Of a stretch of 58,656 bases of DNA, positions 11,911-30,967 are shown piece by piece (position 1 is the first letter of the stretch; every line of letters starts with the position of its first letter). The notes beneath the pieces are model-generated. The model was not told the origin of the DNA, made no database searches, and saw only the letters and a list, made by a program, of their open reading frames with translations. The DNA is from a virus: positions 1 through 58,656 of IMG/VR virus record IMGVR_UViG_3300043119_000255; one strand, 5' to 3'. The position numbers and the translations under genes were made by a program.

Positions 11911-12828
11911 GTGACAGCAAATACAATTTTATCTGACATTAACGAAATCTGGACCGGGTATGTTATCAACGGTAACAAATGGTTTGACCCTGTGGCCCAA
12001 GTGCAGTTTAATCAGCGCACAAAACAAGCAACAAAAGAAGAAGTTGATGATGCCAAGGGTAAGGCCGAAGCGATGGCAAAAGAATTCATCGCATGGGCTA
12101 AGACTAAGAAGTATTCTGGTACGGTGTCGGGTGTATATTGGACTGCTAGACCGGGATCTATGACTTCCGCAGTCGGAGTTGAAGTCGATCAGAAGAAAAA
12201 CCCAACTGATATTCTAGTTAAATTCACTTTTGGACCAGCAAATGGGTTTTTGGGTCTATCCGCAAAAGCAACAAAGGGCAGCGGCGATATTGGCTTCAAA
12301 AATCCGGGAATCGGCACTGTTGATAAGTCGCTGGGACTAGATTTGGCAGACACGAACAAGAAATTAGAAGACGAAGTAGTAAAAGAACTCAAACTACCAG
12401 AGTCCAAGACGTTAAGAAAGTCTTATATTAGACAGAGACCCGCTTTAAAAAAGATAACTGAGAAAAAAGGCTCAGAAATTATGTCTAAGTTGCGTGATGC
12501 GCTCTTAGTCAAGCTAAAATCGATGCAAACTAAGAATTTGCGCGCCTATATTATCAGTGATTGGATGGATGCAGAAGAAGTTTACCCTCCATACATCAAA
12601 GTAACAGGAAAAGGGAGCAAAGCTCCCTATACTGCCGACACAACTGACCCATTGAACAATACAAAACTGTCAAAACTGATAGCCGCGACAACAATTACCT
12701 TGACAAAAGAGGGAAATGAGTCAATTGGTGTTGCTGTCAACGGCTCTCATATAATGAAAATGCGTTTTAAGTATGAATCAGAGAAAGTTGCTTCTTCTAT
12801 GAAGCTATCTGGCGACCCCTGGCCTTAA
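11911..12828 (+). CDS. Phage protein with possible PD-(D/E)XK-like core
   Basis: 305 residues from GTG 11911, with AAAAGG upstream and a TATAAATA box at 11880-11887. The frame is open further upstream, but that part overlaps the divergent holin-like gene. No firm family assignment. Notable is NPTDILVKF ... GFLGLSAKAT: a D followed about 20 residues later by S-x-K on a hydrophobic strand. This is the spacing of PD-(D/E)XK nucleases in which Ser replaces the acidic residue. That reading is tentative. Confidence 0.7.
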   Translation: MTANTILSDINEIWTGYVINGNKWFDPVAQVQFNQRTKQATKEEVDDAKGKAEAMAKEFIAWAKTKKYSGTVSGVYWTARPGSMTSAVGVEVDQKKNPTDILVKFTFGPANGFLGLSAKATKGSGDIGFKNPGIGTVDKSLGLDLADTNKKLEDEVVKELKLPESKTLRKSYIRQRPALKKITEKKGSEIMSKLRDALLVKLKSMQTKNLRAYIISDWMDAEEVYPPYIKVTGKGSKAPYTADTTDPLNNTKLSKLIAATTITLTKEGNESIGVAVNGSHIMKMRFKYESEKVASSMKLSGDPWP

Positions 12829-13766
12829 ACGAATTCGTCTACGTCTAGTGCCATTGAATATTTTGTGTCTGGCGGCAGAGTAATCAGCTTCATACCATAA
12901 TTGTTGACGCCTTCGGGAAGAACAACGCCGTCTTTTAGCTTCAATGTATTCTTCTTGAACGGCGTATAGTCAACATAGTGATGCCAGCGACCATAACGCC
13001 ATACAACACGAGCAACATCTGGGTGCATATCAGCCAACATCTGTGACTTGTTGATGGTACCCTTCTCGTGGTAACGCTTGCCTTCTACTTCTTCACCCTC
13101 TTCCAAGAATTCTTTGTGATAGAACTCTGCGGTGTTACCACCCTTGATGGTCTGTGTAGCAACTTTACCCTGCAAGAACGCATTGAACTGCACCGTGCAG
13201 TCACCATCTTTGAGAACGCGAAGACAGATATCGGTATCTTCATTGTAACGACCGCGCCAACGATGCTTACAATCGTTGCGGATTAGCAATGTCGAGTAGA
13301 TACGAGTGTTTGCGACATACGGAGGATACTTCTGGTTCGGTGCAATGAAGAAACGATACTGCGGACCAGCAATGTAAAGGTTCTCATAGCGGTCAAAGAA
13401 GTCTTCCATGACAGTGAAGAACACACCAGACTCTACGCGAATACGTTCGTTGCGATGAAGACGATAGAAATCTGAAATGTTATCGTCTAGAACCCAGTGA
13501 GCGGTAGCACCAATACTGATAGAGTGGTCCCATGCCCAGTTTCTAGCACGACCAGGACCATCTCCGTGATTGGAGAACGGAGCAACAAGCAGAGTTACAT
13601 AATCAGTTAGACCAAAATTGATTTTAGCCTGTTCATAGTCTGCTTCATCTTGAGGTTCGATGATGATATAATGCGGTATCTTCATGCGAGTCAGCGACCG
13701 CGAAGTAATCATAGTGTCAGCGCGTCCCTTAGAAACAATGTAAACGGGATACTTAGGGTTAGTCAT
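12825..13766 (-). CDS. GT-A fold glycosyltransferase, TET-associated type
   Basis: Begins YPVYIVSKGRADTMITSRSL, then VEPQDE and HWVLDDN, the nucleotide-sugar/metal DxD-like site, followed by RNW, NEDTD and KGGNT. This set matches the TET/JBP-associated glycosyltransferase (TAGT) family of phages, which adds sugars to modified bases in hypermodified DNA. No TET-type oxygenase gene sits next to it, though several 2OG enzymes occur later in the window. Starts in the TAATG of the neighbouring glycosyltransferase-like gene. Confidence 0.75.
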   Translation of the reverse strand: MTNPKYPVYIVSKGRADTMITSRSLTRMKIPHYIIIEPQDEADYEQAKINFGLTDYVTLLVAPFSNHGDGPGRARNWAWDHSISIGATAHWVLDDNISDFYRLHRNERIRVESGVFFTVMEDFFDRYENLYIAGPQYRFFIAPNQKYPPYVANTRIYSTLLIRNDCKHRWRGRYNEDTDICLRVLKDGDCTVQFNAFLQGKVATQTIKGGNTAEFYHKEFLEEGEEVEGKRYHEKGTINKSQMLADMHPDVARVVWRYGRWHHYVDYTPFKKNTLKLKDGVVLPEGVNNYGMKLITLPPDTKYSMALDVDEFV

Positions 13767-14617
13767 TAAAATAAATCCTCCAAATTACCTCTTTGGGCCG
13801 AACCAAGGGCTTCACTCCAGCGTATTTTACTCTTACCAAAATCACGAAATCCACCTTTGATACGCTCACCAGTCTTATCGTCATATAAAATTGTGAAAAT
13901 ACCAGGGAACATCGATTCAACTATCTTATGATCCCGCTGTGTATTCTCATACGTCTGTTCATCCCACACAGTAGAAGTCATATCAGCTTTGTGGACACTG
14001 TTATTAAAGAATACAAACTCTTGACTGACACGATTGCCATAACCATGAGCCAATAAACTCAAAAGAAAAACAACATCTTCTGCGACTTTCACGCGAGTTA
14101 GTTCAAGTTCGGGTAGTAAGTCTTTGAAATCATTACCATTTACAAAGATTGCACTACTAAGAGAAGAGTTGTTGCTATACGCACTGTCTTGTGGTGGGTT
14201 CTCGGCATGACCAGGACCACATACTGTCACAGTCGCATCGTCTAACCACTTACTATATAGGTCAAACATTTCTAGGACATCTTCGTCTGTAGCTTTACGC
14301 TTAGACATTTCCATGTTAGACACGCCAGTCCAGTATTTGGCGTTGCGTCTACCGAATGTAAGGTCATCATCAATAACTGCATACTTCATATTCTGTCCAG
14401 CCTCGTAGATTATCTTACGAGTCTTGGGTAAGCAATAGTAGTCAGTCAGATTGATTTCTTCTGGCAACACCAGATACTCGCATGGGTAATGATATTGGTC
14501 ACGCTCCCACGCCTGCACAACCATCGTTACTCTACTCTTCAACTCTTCGGGAAGATTATTGTATGTAATCTGGTTGTCAGCCCGCTTGACTGTGGGAATG
14601 AAGATACGTTCAATCAT
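13766..14617 (-). CDS. Second GT-A-like glycosyltransferase
   Basis: 283 residues from ATG 14617 (MIERIFIPTVKRADNQITYNNLP), coupled by ATGA to the gene upstream. IFIPTVKR at the N-terminus, KYAVIDDDLTF (DDD metal site) near residue 85 and KVAEDVVF near 190 are laid out as in GT-A enzymes. It is related in plan to the TAGT-like gene next door, so the two may add successive sugars (inference). Confidence 0.65.
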   Translation of the reverse strand: MIERIFIPTVKRADNQITYNNLPEELKSRVTMVVQAWERDQYHYPCEYLVLPEEINLTDYYCLPKTRKIIYEAGQNMKYAVIDDDLTFGRRNAKYWTGVSNMEMSKRKATDEDVLEMFDLYSKWLDDATVTVCGPGHAENPPQDSAYSNNSSLSSAIFVNGNDFKDLLPELELTRVKVAEDVVFLLSLLAHGYGNRVSQEFVFFNNSVHKADMTSTVWDEQTYENTQRDHKIVESMFPGIFTILYDDKTGERIKGGFRDFGKSKIRWSEALGSAQRGNLEDLF

Positions 14618-15225
14618 TCTTCCACCCACCGCAGAAGATAGTTTGGTGTTCGCTCTAGCTTGGGGTGCCAGATAGCCTTAGACTTATCCGTTAGCACCTG
14701 GTCAATACGCCGCGAGAACTCTTCATAGTCCTCAAGCCGACGGAACTTCACAATCACCGACCGAATGGGACCACTATCTTCTAGATACTCAAACTCTGGC
14801 ATCCCCACCCAATGCTCTTTCCAAGCACTCTCTTCCGTTTCGTTCACTTCCACTTCAAGCGAAGCTAGATTCTTATCCTTTCGCGGAGCGCACAAACGCA
14901 TATCCACATCCACCAATGGCACTTGGCCATCGTCAAACAGCGAAGCGCGAGGGTCTGCCAAAGGGTACCAGAAGTCTTTCAGGTTATTCGCTACGATATA
15001 CCCGATACGTTTCGAGAAGTCTACGATATCCTCAACGCTGCGGAAGTGGACGTAGATAGCCTTCCATAAATCAGGGTCGACCTTACGCTTACCAGAATTA
15101 TCCGCAAGGGGCGTATCTATCACCCCTACCAAATGCTCCAGGGACATGCGATACTCGTCTTGCATACGCGCATCTTGGTCCAGATAGTTTTCGTATTCGC
15201 CAGATTCTTTTACATCTACCGTCAT
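14614..15225 (-). CDS. Tandem-domain phage protein of unknown function
   Basis: 203 residues containing two copies of one domain: IYVHFRSVEDIVDFSKRIG ... DFWYPLAD (about 56-95) and VIVKFRRLEDYEEFSRRID ... AIWHPKLER (about 148-190). The repeated F-R-s-x-E-D-x-x-x-F-S-x-R-I pattern is an internal duplication. SD AAGGAG overlaps the stop of the sulfotransferase-like gene. Its position between glycosyltransferases and a sulfotransferase suggests a role in the same modification pathway (inference only). Confidence 0.7.
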   Translation of the reverse strand: MTVDVKESGEYENYLDQDARMQDEYRMSLEHLVGVIDTPLADNSGKRKVDPDLWKAIYVHFRSVEDIVDFSKRIGYIVANNLKDFWYPLADPRASLFDDGQVPLVDVDMRLCAPRKDKNLASLEVEVNETEESAWKEHWVGMPEFEYLEDSGPIRSVIVKFRRLEDYEEFSRRIDQVLTDKSKAIWHPKLERTPNYLLRWVEE

Positions 15226-26937: not shown

Positions 26938-26966
26938 CTTATAGACGATTCGCAGGCAAATGTCAA
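26938..26966 (-). promoter_or_regulatory. GANTC-spacer early promoter
   Basis: TTGACA (26966-26961), 17-nt spacer, TATAAG (26943-26938), GAATC 3 nt before the -10. Overlaps the stop codon of the methyltransferase gene upstream. Confidence 0.8.
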
Positions 26967-27997
26967 GAAAATAAATGGTCCAATGTGATAGGCACAGGCT
27001 TCTCAGGCTTTTTTGAGAATACCATAATGCTCTCATCGGTATTGATATCTACCTTGGCACTGGGTCTGGTTATATTCTTTAGCGTGAGGGACTCCACGTA
27101 ATAAAATCCCAGACTTTCTGCAATCTCTCTTGTGTCTGCGCACAACTTATAATCGAGGAAATCTTTGATGTTGACTAGCATCTTTCCATCATCAACCAAA
27201 TACTTCTTGATGTTTTCCAGAGTGGGTCTTAGATATGTATCAAGCCATTCTTGATATGTGGTACCTGGCTTATATGACTGGTCACCAATTCTATAATCTT
27301 CTAGGCTGAAATATGGAGGACTACTAAATGCTACACCGATGGTGTTCTCCCACTCTGGAACAAACGTTTGAGAACCATGGCATCGGATGTCATACTTCGC
27401 CGATGTGCCATTCACGGCATTATAATCAGTAGCCATTTGGTTGAGACGTTCTACTAACAGATTATTCGGGTCAGTACCATAATATTCCACTCGGTTCCTC
27501 AGTGATGACAGCATTCTAACGCCCCAACCACAAGAGAAGTCATAGTATTTACCGTTGATATTATACCTAGATAGAATGGAGTCAACAGACTTGATTGGGT
27601 AGTTAGACGGCTTCATTGCAACGCCACCACCACTAAGCCGCAAGGCAGCCTCAAAGTTCTTGATATCTGAATCCGTCTTCGGATATACCTTGTCACTAGA
27701 AAGCACCCTGCTCCAAAAGTATCGAATCAAATCCGTAGATTCAAATACCTCTTCAATTGACCACCGTGGAGACTCCAGTTTCACCTTGGCCATAAGGTCT
27801 TTTACATAGTAACTGGTAATGGTGCTTATGATAGTGCCGCCATTGAATACTGATTCAAGATTTTTCTTGACCAGTTCAAAATCAGGCTTTTCGTAATACG
27901 CAGCCTTCAATTGTAAGCACTTATCCTCTGGCAAGTCCACCCAGTGGTCGGTATGAAGTGTCTTGCCTAGATGGGTAATTTGATATTTTTTGGCCAT
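26963..27997 (-). CDS. DNA methyltransferase (SPPY type)
   Basis: SAM-binding motif DFSCGWGVRM near residue 170 followed by the catalytic motif VAFSSPPYFSLEDYR near 240: motif I before motif IV, as in alpha/gamma-type adenine or N4-cytosine enzymes. No target-recognition domain I can name. Start at ATG 27997; the frame extends upstream over the next gene. It lies three genes before the restriction-like pair at 28695-30234 but is not part of it. Confidence 0.82.
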   Translation of the reverse strand: MAKKYQITHLGKTLHTDHWVDLPEDKCLQLKAAYYEKPDFELVKKNLESVFNGGTIISTITSYYVKDLMAKVKLESPRWSIEEVFESTDLIRYFWSRVLSSDKVYPKTDSDIKNFEAALRLSGGGVAMKPSNYPIKSVDSILSRYNINGKYYDFSCGWGVRMLSSLRNRVEYYGTDPNNLLVERLNQMATDYNAVNGTSAKYDIRCHGSQTFVPEWENTIGVAFSSPPYFSLEDYRIGDQSYKPGTTYQEWLDTYLRPTLENIKKYLVDDGKMLVNIKDFLDYKLCADTREIAESLGFYYVESLTLKNITRPSAKVDINTDESIMVFSKKPEKPVPITLDHLFS

Positions 27998-28004
27998 ACT
28001 ACAA

Positions 28005-28361
28005 TCAAGCAACCTTCTGGTATGGCTTGTTCCAGTCACCAGCATTTACGTTGACGTACCAACCCACATCGAAGTAATCTATCTGTGAATTGCTGTTATC
28101 GTGGTTGCCATCGTGCATGGCGGCTTTGACTTCTTCGAGGAAGGCCAATTCCTTACCCTGATAATTGTCTGCTAACCAATACAAATTAACTTGGCTATAG
28201 CCACGGTCATTGTTGACCAGGTCAAGAGGACCAGACTTAAGGTTGAGAACAAGGGTGCTGTAGTTGCGAACCGCAAGACTACCCTTCATATTATACTTCT
28301 TGAGGACTGCCTTAATCTTAGGGGCAAGACGAGCCTTCTCACTTTGGTTCATATAAGCCAT
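28005..28361 (-). CDS. Conserved phage protein of unknown function (118 aa)
   Basis: Begins MAYMNQSEKARLAPKIKAVLKKYNMKGSL; this N-terminus with IKA-L-KKYNMKG plus the C-terminal DYFDVGWYVNVN block recurs in many tailed phages, with no known function. Behind a GANTC promoter. Confidence 0.75.
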   Translation of the reverse strand: MAYMNQSEKARLAPKIKAVLKKYNMKGSLAVRNYSTLVLNLKSGPLDLVNNDRGYSQVNLYWLADNYQGKELAFLEEVKAAMHDGNHDNSNSQIDYFDVGWYVNVNAGDWNKPYQKVA

Positions 28362-28670: not shown

Positions 28671-28698
28671 AATATAGCAGATTCGTGAGGAAAGTCAA
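28671..28698 (-). promoter_or_regulatory. GANTC-spacer early promoter
   Basis: TTGACT (28698-28693), 16-nt spacer, TATATT (28676-28671), GAATC 3 nt before the -10. The TGA of the adenine methyltransferase gene sits inside the -35 hexamer. Confidence 0.78.
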
Positions 28699-29756
28699 GC
28701 GAATAATTTTTCCAAAGAGGGTGTGGGAATAATATTCAAATCCATCATCACGGTCTCCAATAGAGAATGGACATAGTGCCTACTCAATATTTTTTGTGTT
28801 GGTCCCATATAGTTTGCCAGAAACAAATCACGATAAAGATGCCTGTATTCAGCCATTCTTTTCTGAAATTCATCTACAATTCTTTTTTGGTCAGATTCCG
28901 TGATAGTATGGTCAGGTAGAGTAATTTGGTATGTGGTAAAACTTTTAGGAGAGCAATAGATTGCATCACCTGAATTGTATTTCACACCATTACTCCACTT
29001 ACCATTATCCAGTAGACCCACAACAAGATTTGTATTGGGAGGTGGCATACCAACATCCGTCTTTACGATGTTGATACCCCTGGCTCGATTTATGTCCAGA
29101 AAGAATTTTTCGCCATATAGAAAATTATTTTCCGCTTTCAAAACTATATCGACGGTTTCACCTGAAGATAGAGACATCGGAAACTGTTGAGTATCACGGC
29201 GACCACGTTTCAGATGAATAACGCATATACCAGTGGTAGCATCATCAAAAACAGGAGTATTCCAATACTTCGCACTGACAATATGGTGAGTTTCGAATAG
29301 TTTCTTTCTTATACCTGCTCGACTCTCACAAAAAAAATTACTAGGAAGAACTTCTAAGGCTTCCTCACAATCAATTGCCAAACTTGCTAAATGGCATTTA
29401 TAGTAATCGTTTTGTCCCCATTTATCATACACACTCTTGTCACCCTTACACTTGTTCTTTGCCAGATAAGGAGGATTAGTTACCACCAACATATCTTTGT
29501 ATGATGGTGGATTATTCAAACTATCATTCTGTATGGTATTTGGATAATTAGGCTGTAAATCATATGTAACTACTGACTTCGCGCCATTTCTAATTGACCA
29601 TTCCAACAAGTCACCGCCACCGGCAAATGGATCAACTACAATTTTATCTTTCACCAACTCCTCATAGCCAGCGAGAATATAGTCGCTGTTCGTGGTGTAA
29701 AATTGGCCAAGGGCCTGCTTTTGTGATTGTGAAACGTGACGTTTAGCCAACTTCAA
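28695..29756 (-). CDS. Adenine-specific DNA methyltransferase (NPPY type) of a putative R-M pair
   Basis: 353 residues. Motif X QALGQFYTT at the N-terminus, motif I VVDPFAGGGDLLEW, motif IV VVTNPPYLA: the gamma-class order of N6-adenine methyltransferases. No ATG is available; start is TTG 29756 or TTG 29750, the latter nine nt after GGAG. Coupled to the nuclease gene by a 14-bp overlap. Expected to protect the phage's own DNA from the linked nuclease (inference). The recognition site cannot be read from sequence. Confidence 0.85.
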   Translation of the reverse strand: MKLAKRHVSQSQKQALGQFYTTNSDYILAGYEELVKDKIVVDPFAGGGDLLEWSIRNGAKSVVTYDLQPNYPNTIQNDSLNNPPSYKDMLVVTNPPYLAKNKCKGDKSVYDKWGQNDYYKCHLASLAIDCEEALEVLPSNFFCESRAGIRKKLFETHHIVSAKYWNTPVFDDATTGICVIHLKRGRRDTQQFPMSLSSGETVDIVLKAENNFLYGEKFFLDINRARGINIVKTDVGMPPPNTNLVVGLLDNGKWSNGVKYNSGDAIYCSPKSFTTYQITLPDHTITESDQKRIVDEFQKRMAEYRHLYRDLFLANYMGPTQKILSRHYVHSLLETVMMDLNIIPTPSLEKLFA

Positions 29757-30234
29757 CTGCTCCGATCAATCCCAGAGTGTTTTCGTTGCCGTAATACATG
29801 TATGTACCACTGTCGCCGTTTTTGCCACCATGCTGCGGCGAAAATATGCCATTTGCCACATTTTCTAATACTTTTTCTTTTGTCATGGACATGATAATGA
29901 TTTTATCAGGATAAAACATGCTGAAAATCATTTGTGCATAGTCTTGCTTGGGTCGAATTTGTAGAAAAGTGAACAAATCGGTGTTCTTCATCAAGCAACT
30001 ACCCTTGATTTCCGATTTCACACCGTCAATGATTCGGTCGTGATCGCTGTTCACCGGTTTATTTACCACTGACCCTCGACCACACAAAACGTTCTCAGTA
30101 ATGAGTTCGTAGTATTTGCCTTTTTGCTTGGCACCCATGGCTTTTACAAATTTCATTGGGGTATTGTCGTACCGCGTATCGCGGTCTTCGGGCAATAAGA
30201 GTTCGGGAGAAACTTCTTCATAAATATAAGACAT
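29743..30234 (-). CDS. PD-(D/E)XK restriction-like endonuclease
   Basis: 163 residues. D70-G-V-K-S-E75-I-K77 is a textbook D-x4-E-x-K nuclease active site on a strand-turn-strand, preceded by acidic residues in YYELITENVLCG. Small single-domain size is typical of type II enzymes. Immediately upstream of the adenine methyltransferase gene and overlapping it, the standard arrangement of a restriction-modification pair. In a phage it could cut host or competitor DNA (inference). Confidence 0.8.
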   Translation of the reverse strand: MSYIYEEVSPELLLPEDRDTRYDNTPMKFVKAMGAKQKGKYYELITENVLCGRGSVVNKPVNSDHDRIIDGVKSEIKGSCLMKNTDLFTFLQIRPKQDYAQMIFSMFYPDKIIIMSMTKEKVLENVANGIFSPQHGGKNGDSGTYMYYGNENTLGLIGAVEVG

Positions 30235-30257: not shown

Positions 30258-30286
30258 AATATAGCAGATTCGCAATCAAATGTCAA
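30258..30286 (-). promoter_or_regulatory. GANTC-spacer early promoter
   Basis: TTGACA (30286-30281), 17-nt spacer, TATATT (30263-30258), GAATC 3 nt before the -10. Drives the restriction-modification pair, so that pair would itself be methylation-sensitive if the GANTC idea holds. Confidence 0.8.
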
Positions 30287-30289
30287 GCA

Positions 30290-30967
30290 CTATTTTTTGT
30301 TGGCAGCGTCTTCCTTCTTGCCGATAGGATTACGAACTTCGGCAGAGGCTATCTTGCGGATGTGCTTATGGACCTGTGTCAGGCCATGTTCGTCTGCGTG
30401 GTCATTATCCACAATGTGCATGTTCTCACGACCGAAATGCTTCTGGAAGTGGCCGATGTTGCCTTGCACTTGCTTGTGCATTCTTTCGACTTCGTGATGG
30501 GGAAGGCTGCGTTCACGTTGGTCGTTGCGCTTCTTGGCTGTTTCCAGTGAGGTGTTGACGAACACCATATGAGTATCGTAGCCCATCTTACGGAGATGCT
30601 CGGAGTGCTTTCTAATCTTCTCTGGGTCTTTACCTGTGCCGTCAATAACCAAGCCAAGGCGACCCTTGTGGTAATGATGTTCACGCTTCTTGGTTAGTTC
30701 CTTGGCATGGGCACGGATTTCTTGGCCCTTCTTGGAGTAGATATTTTCTGGTGTCGCAGCCAAACCATGCTTCTTCATACCCTTCTCGAATAGGTCATCC
30801 GAGTTGACATGCTTGAAGCCAAGACCATGTGTGGTCTTCTTAGATACATATGACTTGCCTGACCCTGGACCGCCTGCTAGGAAGATAGCCTTACGTCTAG
30901 CTGGGTCGTGGATACCCTCATCTAGAACTTCTTCTACGAGGTTGATAAAATCGGCAAATGATAACAT
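30290..30967 (-). CDS. P-loop kinase, zeta-toxin/polynucleotide-kinase-like
   Basis: 225 residues. Walker A FLAGGPGSGKSYVSK near residue 30, VNSDD and LGLVIDGTG in zeta-toxin-like positions, and a basic C-terminus. The N-terminal MLSFADFINLVEEVLDEG resembles the short tags found on virion or capsid-targeted proteins of T4-like marine phages. GGAG lies before the ATG and a TATAAATA box 27 nt upstream, suggesting late expression and perhaps injection with the DNA (inference). Confidence 0.75.
   Translation of the reverse strand: MLSFADFINLVEEVLDEGIHDPARRKAIFLAGGPGSGKSYVSKKTTHGLGFKHVNSDDLFEKGMKKHGLAATPENIYSKKGQEIRAHAKELTKKREHHYHKGRLGLVIDGTGKDPEKIRKHSEHLRKMGYDTHMVFVNTSLETAKKRNDQRERSLPHHEVERMHKQVQGNIGHFQKHFGRENMHIVDNDHADEHGLTQVHKHIRKIASAEVRNPIGKKEDAANKK

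What the first reader, a model, noticed from the sequence alone, without database searches (positions are those of the whole stretch)
28695..30234. Candidate phage-encoded restriction-modification pair
Seen: a PD-(D/E)XK nuclease (D70-x4-E75-x-K77) overlaps an N6-adenine methyltransferase with a TTG start; the pair is behind a GANTC promoter. Known: type II R-M genes come in such pairs. Inference: the phage may degrade host or rival DNA while its own is methylated; the weak TTG start and coupling could set the order of expression.
Basis: partly seen in the sequence, partly recalled or inferred. Interest (0 to 1): 0.65.

Follow-up and report, generated by a model that had tools for sequence, protein, structure and literature searches.

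The report
Phage restriction-modification gene pair
A virus of bacteria carries side by side a gene for a DNA-cutting enzyme and a gene for an enzyme that probably marks its own DNA as safe, one of many such mix-and-match pairs in environmental phages, so it can plausibly cut unmarked host or rival DNA while sparing itself.

Summary
The pair is real. The nuclease gene R (29743-30234, minus strand, 163 aa) and methyltransferase gene M (28695-29750, minus strand, 351 aa) form a two-gene unit behind one sigma-70-type promoter. R is predicted with high confidence (pLDDT 91.6) as a PD-(D/E)XK nuclease, nearest in fold to NhoI/Eco15I, I-Ssp6803I and PvuII. M (pLDDT 91.3) matches gamma-class N6-adenine methyltransferases (CamA, M.BseCI, M.TaqI). 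R relatives are followed directly by a DNA methyltransferase in 21 of 42 phage clusters, from four methyltransferase families; M relatives follow either this R or a second nuclease family. This mosaic linkage is the strongest evidence for a restriction-modification function. The catalytic aspartate is D66 (41/41 conserved), not D70 (N or Q in three relatives). The M start is most likely TTG 29750, where relatives use ATG, so no conserved timing device is seen. The GANTC promoter is phage-wide (15 sites, 0.27 expected). Activity, target site and biological role (host DNA, rivals) are untested. It is a new member of a known kind: chloroviruses have proven virus-encoded pairs, and cyanophage P-SSM4 carries a related annotated one.

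The parts
29743..30234 (-). R gene: PD-(D/E)XK nuclease, 163 aa, active site E43, D66, E75, K77
   Evidence: phrog_6927, 1e-18; PADLOC REase_II, 2e-10
28695..29750 (-). M gene: gamma-class N6-adenine DNA methyltransferase, 351 aa from TTG 29750 (353 aa if TTG 29756); motif X GQFYTT, motif I DPFAGGG, motif IV TNPPYL
   Evidence: (phrog_18657 DNA methyltransferase, 2e-14)
29743..29750 (-). 8-bp overlap of the R stop codon with the M start (TTGGCTAA); GGAG ribosome-binding-like site at 29760-29763
   Evidence: junction sequences
30258..30286 (-). Promoter of the pair: TTGACA-N17-TATATT with GAATC in the spacer
28680..28698 (-). Next promoter of the same class (TTGACT...CGAATC); its -35 box overlaps the M stop codon, so R and M form a two-gene transcription unit

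Best explanation
The two genes are a phage-encoded type II restriction-modification pair, expressed from a host-type (probably early) phage promoter. R is a small homodimer-type PD-(D/E)XK endonuclease that cuts a short DNA site when it is unmethylated. M puts N6-methyladenine on the same site in the phage genome. Phage DNA packaged in the previous cycle would enter already methylated, and replication would leave it hemimethylated until M restores it, so R can be made first without harming the phage. The targets would be unmethylated DNA of the host (nucleotide recycling, host shut-off) or of co-infecting phages. Shown here: gene order, promoter, predicted folds, conserved active sites, recurrent R and M linkage in independent contexts. 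Inferred: shared recognition site, cleavage, protection, and the biological role.
For: R: high-confidence model (pLDDT 91.6) whose nearest solved folds are NhoI/Eco15I (Z 10.4), I-Ssp6803I (Z 10.1) and PvuII (Z 8.0). D66, E75 and K77 are invariant in 41 diverse relatives, and E43 is conserved in 39 (one Q, one gap). M: pLDDT 91.3, best folds CamA, M.BseCI, M.TaqI, HsdM at E down to 9e-11. Linkage: 21 of 42 R clusters have a DNA methyltransferase directly downstream, from four families; 21 of 37 adjacent ORFs of 200 aa or more versus 2 of 98 non-adjacent, Fisher p 1e-12. M relatives are mostly preceded, often with overlap, by this R or by a different putative nuclease. The R-M pair recurs in contigs whose other genes differ (L097, L098, L100). 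Two Actinomycetota assemblies carry an M-R pair with this R family.
Against: No activity, methylation data or recognition site is available. Half of the R clusters have no adjacent methyltransferase (some are truncated contigs), yet keep the active site. M relatives without a visible R exist (L099; huge phage LR756504). Pairwise identities of R and M within the closest four pairs are not fully congruent. The methyltransferase models used in the linkage count were built from the adjacent genes, so non-adjacent methyltransferases of other families would be missed.
Confidence: 0.77

Rival explanations
1. R is a site-specific endonuclease of the free-standing homing type (PD-(D/E)XK, like I-Ssp6803I), and the methyltransferase neighbour protects against or merely hitch-hikes with it.
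For: Fold match to I-Ssp6803I as strong as to restriction enzymes. Solitary R relatives with intact active sites lie exactly between the two clamp-loader genes of freshwater T4-like phages, an insertion pattern typical of T4 homing genes.
Against: In the window R is paired with a methyltransferase, is not in an intron and does not interrupt a conserved gene pair. Repeated coupling with four methyltransferase families is expected of restriction, not of homing.
Confidence: 0.1
2. R and M are both active but not cognate: M is an anti-restriction methyltransferase guarding the phage against host enzymes, and R is a host-DNA nuclease to which phage DNA is immune for another reason (for example glucosylated bases).
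For: Solitary R and solitary M relatives both exist. The window has two genes related to T4-type DNA glucosyltransferases at 12825-14629.
Against: Overlapping co-expression and statistically strong linkage of R with methyltransferases in independent contexts.
Confidence: 0.1
3. The pair is a decaying remnant without activity.
For: Weak TTG start for M in this lineage; no activity data.
Against: Both frames intact, all catalytic motifs present, strong promoter, identical copy in a second contig.
Confidence: 0.03

Closest known systems
Cyanophage R-M cassette (P-SSM4 PSSM4_046/047/048; P-SSM3 PRAG_00176-178; annotated restriction endonuclease II + DNA methyltransferase)
   Same: Homologous M (24-25% identity overall, shared GQ-[FY]-[FY]-TT and TNPPYLAK motifs), same order R then M, tightly abutting
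   Different: Its R (T4-GC 364) shows no convincing homology to this R (15-22% in a forced alignment); a further SPPY-type methyltransferase follows directly
T4-GC 685 / phrog_6927 proteins (S-ShM2, P-SSM7, S-BM3 'restriction endonuclease')
   Same: Same nuclease family as R with the same active site
   Different: Solitary next to a helicase in several cyanophages, or paired with an unrelated methyltransferase (P-SSM7)
Chlorovirus PBCV-1 CviAI and CviAII R-M systems (PMC7248222) and the marseillevirus GATC system (PMC7253447)
   Same: Virus-encoded N6-adenine methyltransferase next to its restriction endonuclease
   Different: Viruses of eukaryotes; proven recognition sites; no sequence relationship was tested
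BisI family (NhoI, Eco15I)
   Same: Nearest solved fold of R
   Different: BisI enzymes have PD-QXK, need methylated cytosine and have no partner methyltransferase (PMC11347163); R has E75 and a partner

Membership tests
Type II restriction-modification system | Endonuclease with an intact PD-(D/E)XK (or other) nuclease core | tested here: met
   Model and fold matches, invariant D66/E75/K77
Type II restriction-modification system | Separate DNA methyltransferase encoded next to the endonuclease | tested here: met
   M overlaps R; gamma N6A methyltransferase fold
Type II restriction-modification system | Both enzymes recognise the same sequence and methylation blocks cleavage | not testable with these tools
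   Needs biochemistry or methylome data
Gamma-class N6-adenine methyltransferase | Motif order X (N-terminal), I, IV (NPPY), then target-recognition region | tested here: met
   GQFYTT at 17-22, DPFAGGG at 42-48, TNPPYL at 93-98, C-terminal region (353-aa numbering); fold matches M.TaqI, M.BseCI, CamA
BisI family (NhoI, Eco15I) | PD-QXK active site and no accompanying methyltransferase (PMC11347163) | tested here: not met
   E75 instead of Q in 41 of 41; methyltransferase adjacent
I-Ssp6803I-type homing endonuclease | Encoded in an intron or inserted in a conserved gene context, mobile to its own long target site | tested here: inconclusive
   Not met by context in the window; solitary relatives sit between clamp-loader genes; mobility untested
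Cyanophage GC364/GC365 R-M cassette | Homologous R and homologous M | tested here: not met
   M homologous, R from another family

The most novel reading that the evidence does not exclude
One phage nuclease family serves as an interchangeable cutting module: paired with any of several unrelated methyltransferases it is a restriction system, and alone between replication genes of T4-like phages it acts as a selfish or competitor-excluding endonuclease, so restriction and homing would be two states of one mobile module.
Probability: 0.15. Interest if true: 0.62.

Novelty: new member of a known kind. Interest (0 to 1): 0.4.

Why it matters
Confirmed virus-encoded restriction-modification systems are best known from viruses of algae and amoebae. 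This pair, and the mosaic of related pairs in environmental phages, suggests that lytic phages commonly carry such systems, most with unnamed nucleases. That makes phage-against-phage or phage-against-host restriction directly testable and offers uncharacterised small restriction enzymes.

Tried and rejected
Sequence searches of R and M (single and profile) against solved structures gave nothing significant. Pfam had no hit for R and only sub-threshold hits for M; NCBIfam had none of note. A first scan of bacterial genomes with the broad R profile found no relative; a second found one. The plasmid collection gave one weak M hit only. Searching 396 genomes of the phylum of the Actinomycetota hit found two with the R family, one of them the original. 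The claim that the GANTC promoter is special to the pair was rejected. D70 as catalytic residue was rejected. Homology of R with the P-SSM4 endonuclease was tested and not supported. Palindrome counts in the window show depletion of GTAC and GATC but cannot identify the R site. Literature searches found no paper characterising this R family; the main comparative T4-like cyanophage paper never uses the word restriction (PMC3037559).

Full report
What is there. The window is a 58,656-base virus record in IMG/VR. On its minus strand R (29743-30234, 163 aa) is followed by M (28695-29756 at its longest, 353 aa). A promoter TTGACA-N17-TATATT lies at 30286-30258. After the M stop codon the next promoter of the same kind begins at once, its -35 box overlapping the stop. 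The pair is therefore a two-gene transcription unit. An identical copy is on a second contig, IMGVR_UViG_3300043036_000182.

Start and overlap. The M start most consistent with relatives is TTG at 29750, giving MAKRHVSQ. The relatives start MAKRH (L097), MPKRH (L098) and MKRH (L100), all with ATG. A GGAG lies 9 nt before this TTG and only 3 nt before the first TTG. The TTG is thus peculiar to this lineage and not a conserved timing device. Translational coupling remains plausible, because R and M overlap by 8 bp and L098 also overlaps.

Nuclease. R matches phrog_6927 (1e-18, unknown function) and a PADLOC type II restriction enzyme model (2e-10) but no Pfam family. An AlphaFold2 model from 41 sequences has pLDDT 91.6. 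The nearest solved structures are NhoI/Eco15I (Z 10.4), I-Ssp6803I (Z 10.1), Holliday junction resolvases and PvuII (about Z 8). Foldseek E-values are modest (best 2.7e-4), so this supports the PD-(D/E)XK fold rather than any one family. D66, E75 and K77 are identical in 41 of 41 sequences and E43 is conserved in 39; D70 is N or Q in three. The search patterns favoured D70, which makes its variation more telling. In Eco15I the active site is E49, D69, Q79, K81, with the aspartate at the start of the second strand (PMC11347163). D66 of R fits this position and R has glutamate in place of the glutamine. The catalytic motif is therefore most likely D66-x8-E75-I-K77.

Methyltransferase. M matches phrog_18657 DNA methyltransferase (2e-14). 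Its model (pLDDT 91.3) matches CamA, M.BseCI, M.TaqI and type I HsdM. With motif X (GQFYTT) at the N-terminus, motif I DPFAGGG and motif IV TNPPYL, it has the order of gamma-class N6-adenine enzymes.

Linkage. In 42 non-redundant R clusters from phages, 21 have a DNA methyltransferase immediately downstream: eight DLPYG type, five SPPYF type, four NPPYL type (like M), four DPPYN type. Among ORFs of 200 aa or more, 21 of 37 adjacent ones and 2 of 98 non-adjacent ones are such methyltransferases (Fisher p 1e-12). The models came from the adjacent genes, so the background is a lower bound. Conversely, M relatives are mostly preceded by R (this lineage) or by a second nuclease-like family including the cyanophage 'restriction endonuclease II'. 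The R-M pair is found in contigs whose neighbouring genes differ (L097, L098, L100), so it behaves as a module. Two Actinomycetota genome assemblies carry a DPPF-type methyltransferase upstream of an R relative.

How it probably works. R cuts unmethylated sites, M protects the phage genome. DNA packaged by a methylating phage enters protected, so early R expression is tolerable (inference). Chloroviruses have proven systems of this type (PMC7248222). In marseilleviruses the system does not degrade host DNA and is proposed to exclude competitors (PMC7253447). Which role applies here is open.

Novelty. It is a new member of a known kind. The modest surprise is the free recombination of one small nuclease family with at least four methyltransferase families, and its solitary occurrence between the clamp-loader genes of T4-like phages.

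Noticed in passing
window 4077, 10429 (+); 17081-54202 (-), 15 sites: Phage-wide promoter class TTGACaTTtcctgCGAATCtGCTATaaT with a built-in GAATC (GANTC) site: 15 matches to TTGAC-N8-13-CGAATC against 0.27 expected. If the host has a CcrM-type methyltransferase, methylation could tune these promoters.
   Followed up: partly
window 26963-28045 (-): Second DNA methyltransferase (SSPPYF motif, N6_N4_Mtase 7e-7) two genes downstream of M under its own promoter; distantly related (about 25%) to the SPPYF methyltransferases that pair with R relatives in freshwater phages.
   Followed up: partly
L034, L038, L050, L076 (and L035 with a methyltransferase): R relatives with intact active site sit directly between, or next to, the gp44 and gp62 clamp-loader genes of T4-like phages, mostly without a methyltransferase, like a free-standing homing endonuclease.
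   Followed up: partly
L108, L110, L114, L121, L127, L133, L168: Upstream (in L127 downstream) of M relatives lies a different putative nuclease family, many with a GG-[AHS]-Q motif, almost invisible to Pfam and PADLOC.
   Followed up: partly
window, whole: GTAC (57 observed, 190 expected), GATC (81, 247) and CCGG (60, 125) are strongly under-represented, suggesting avoidance of host restriction sites.
   Followed up: no
window 12825-14629 (-): Two adjacent genes related to T4-type beta-glucosyl-HMC-alpha-glucosyltransferase (phrog_842), hinting at glycosylated DNA or other glycosylation.
   Followed up: no
window 30290-30967 (-): Zeta-toxin/polynucleotide-kinase-like P-loop protein directly upstream of the pair.
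   Followed up: no
L176 3057-4525; L178 1345-3011: Actinomycetota assemblies with a DPPF methyltransferase followed by an R-family nuclease, apparently cellular R-M systems.
   Followed up: partly
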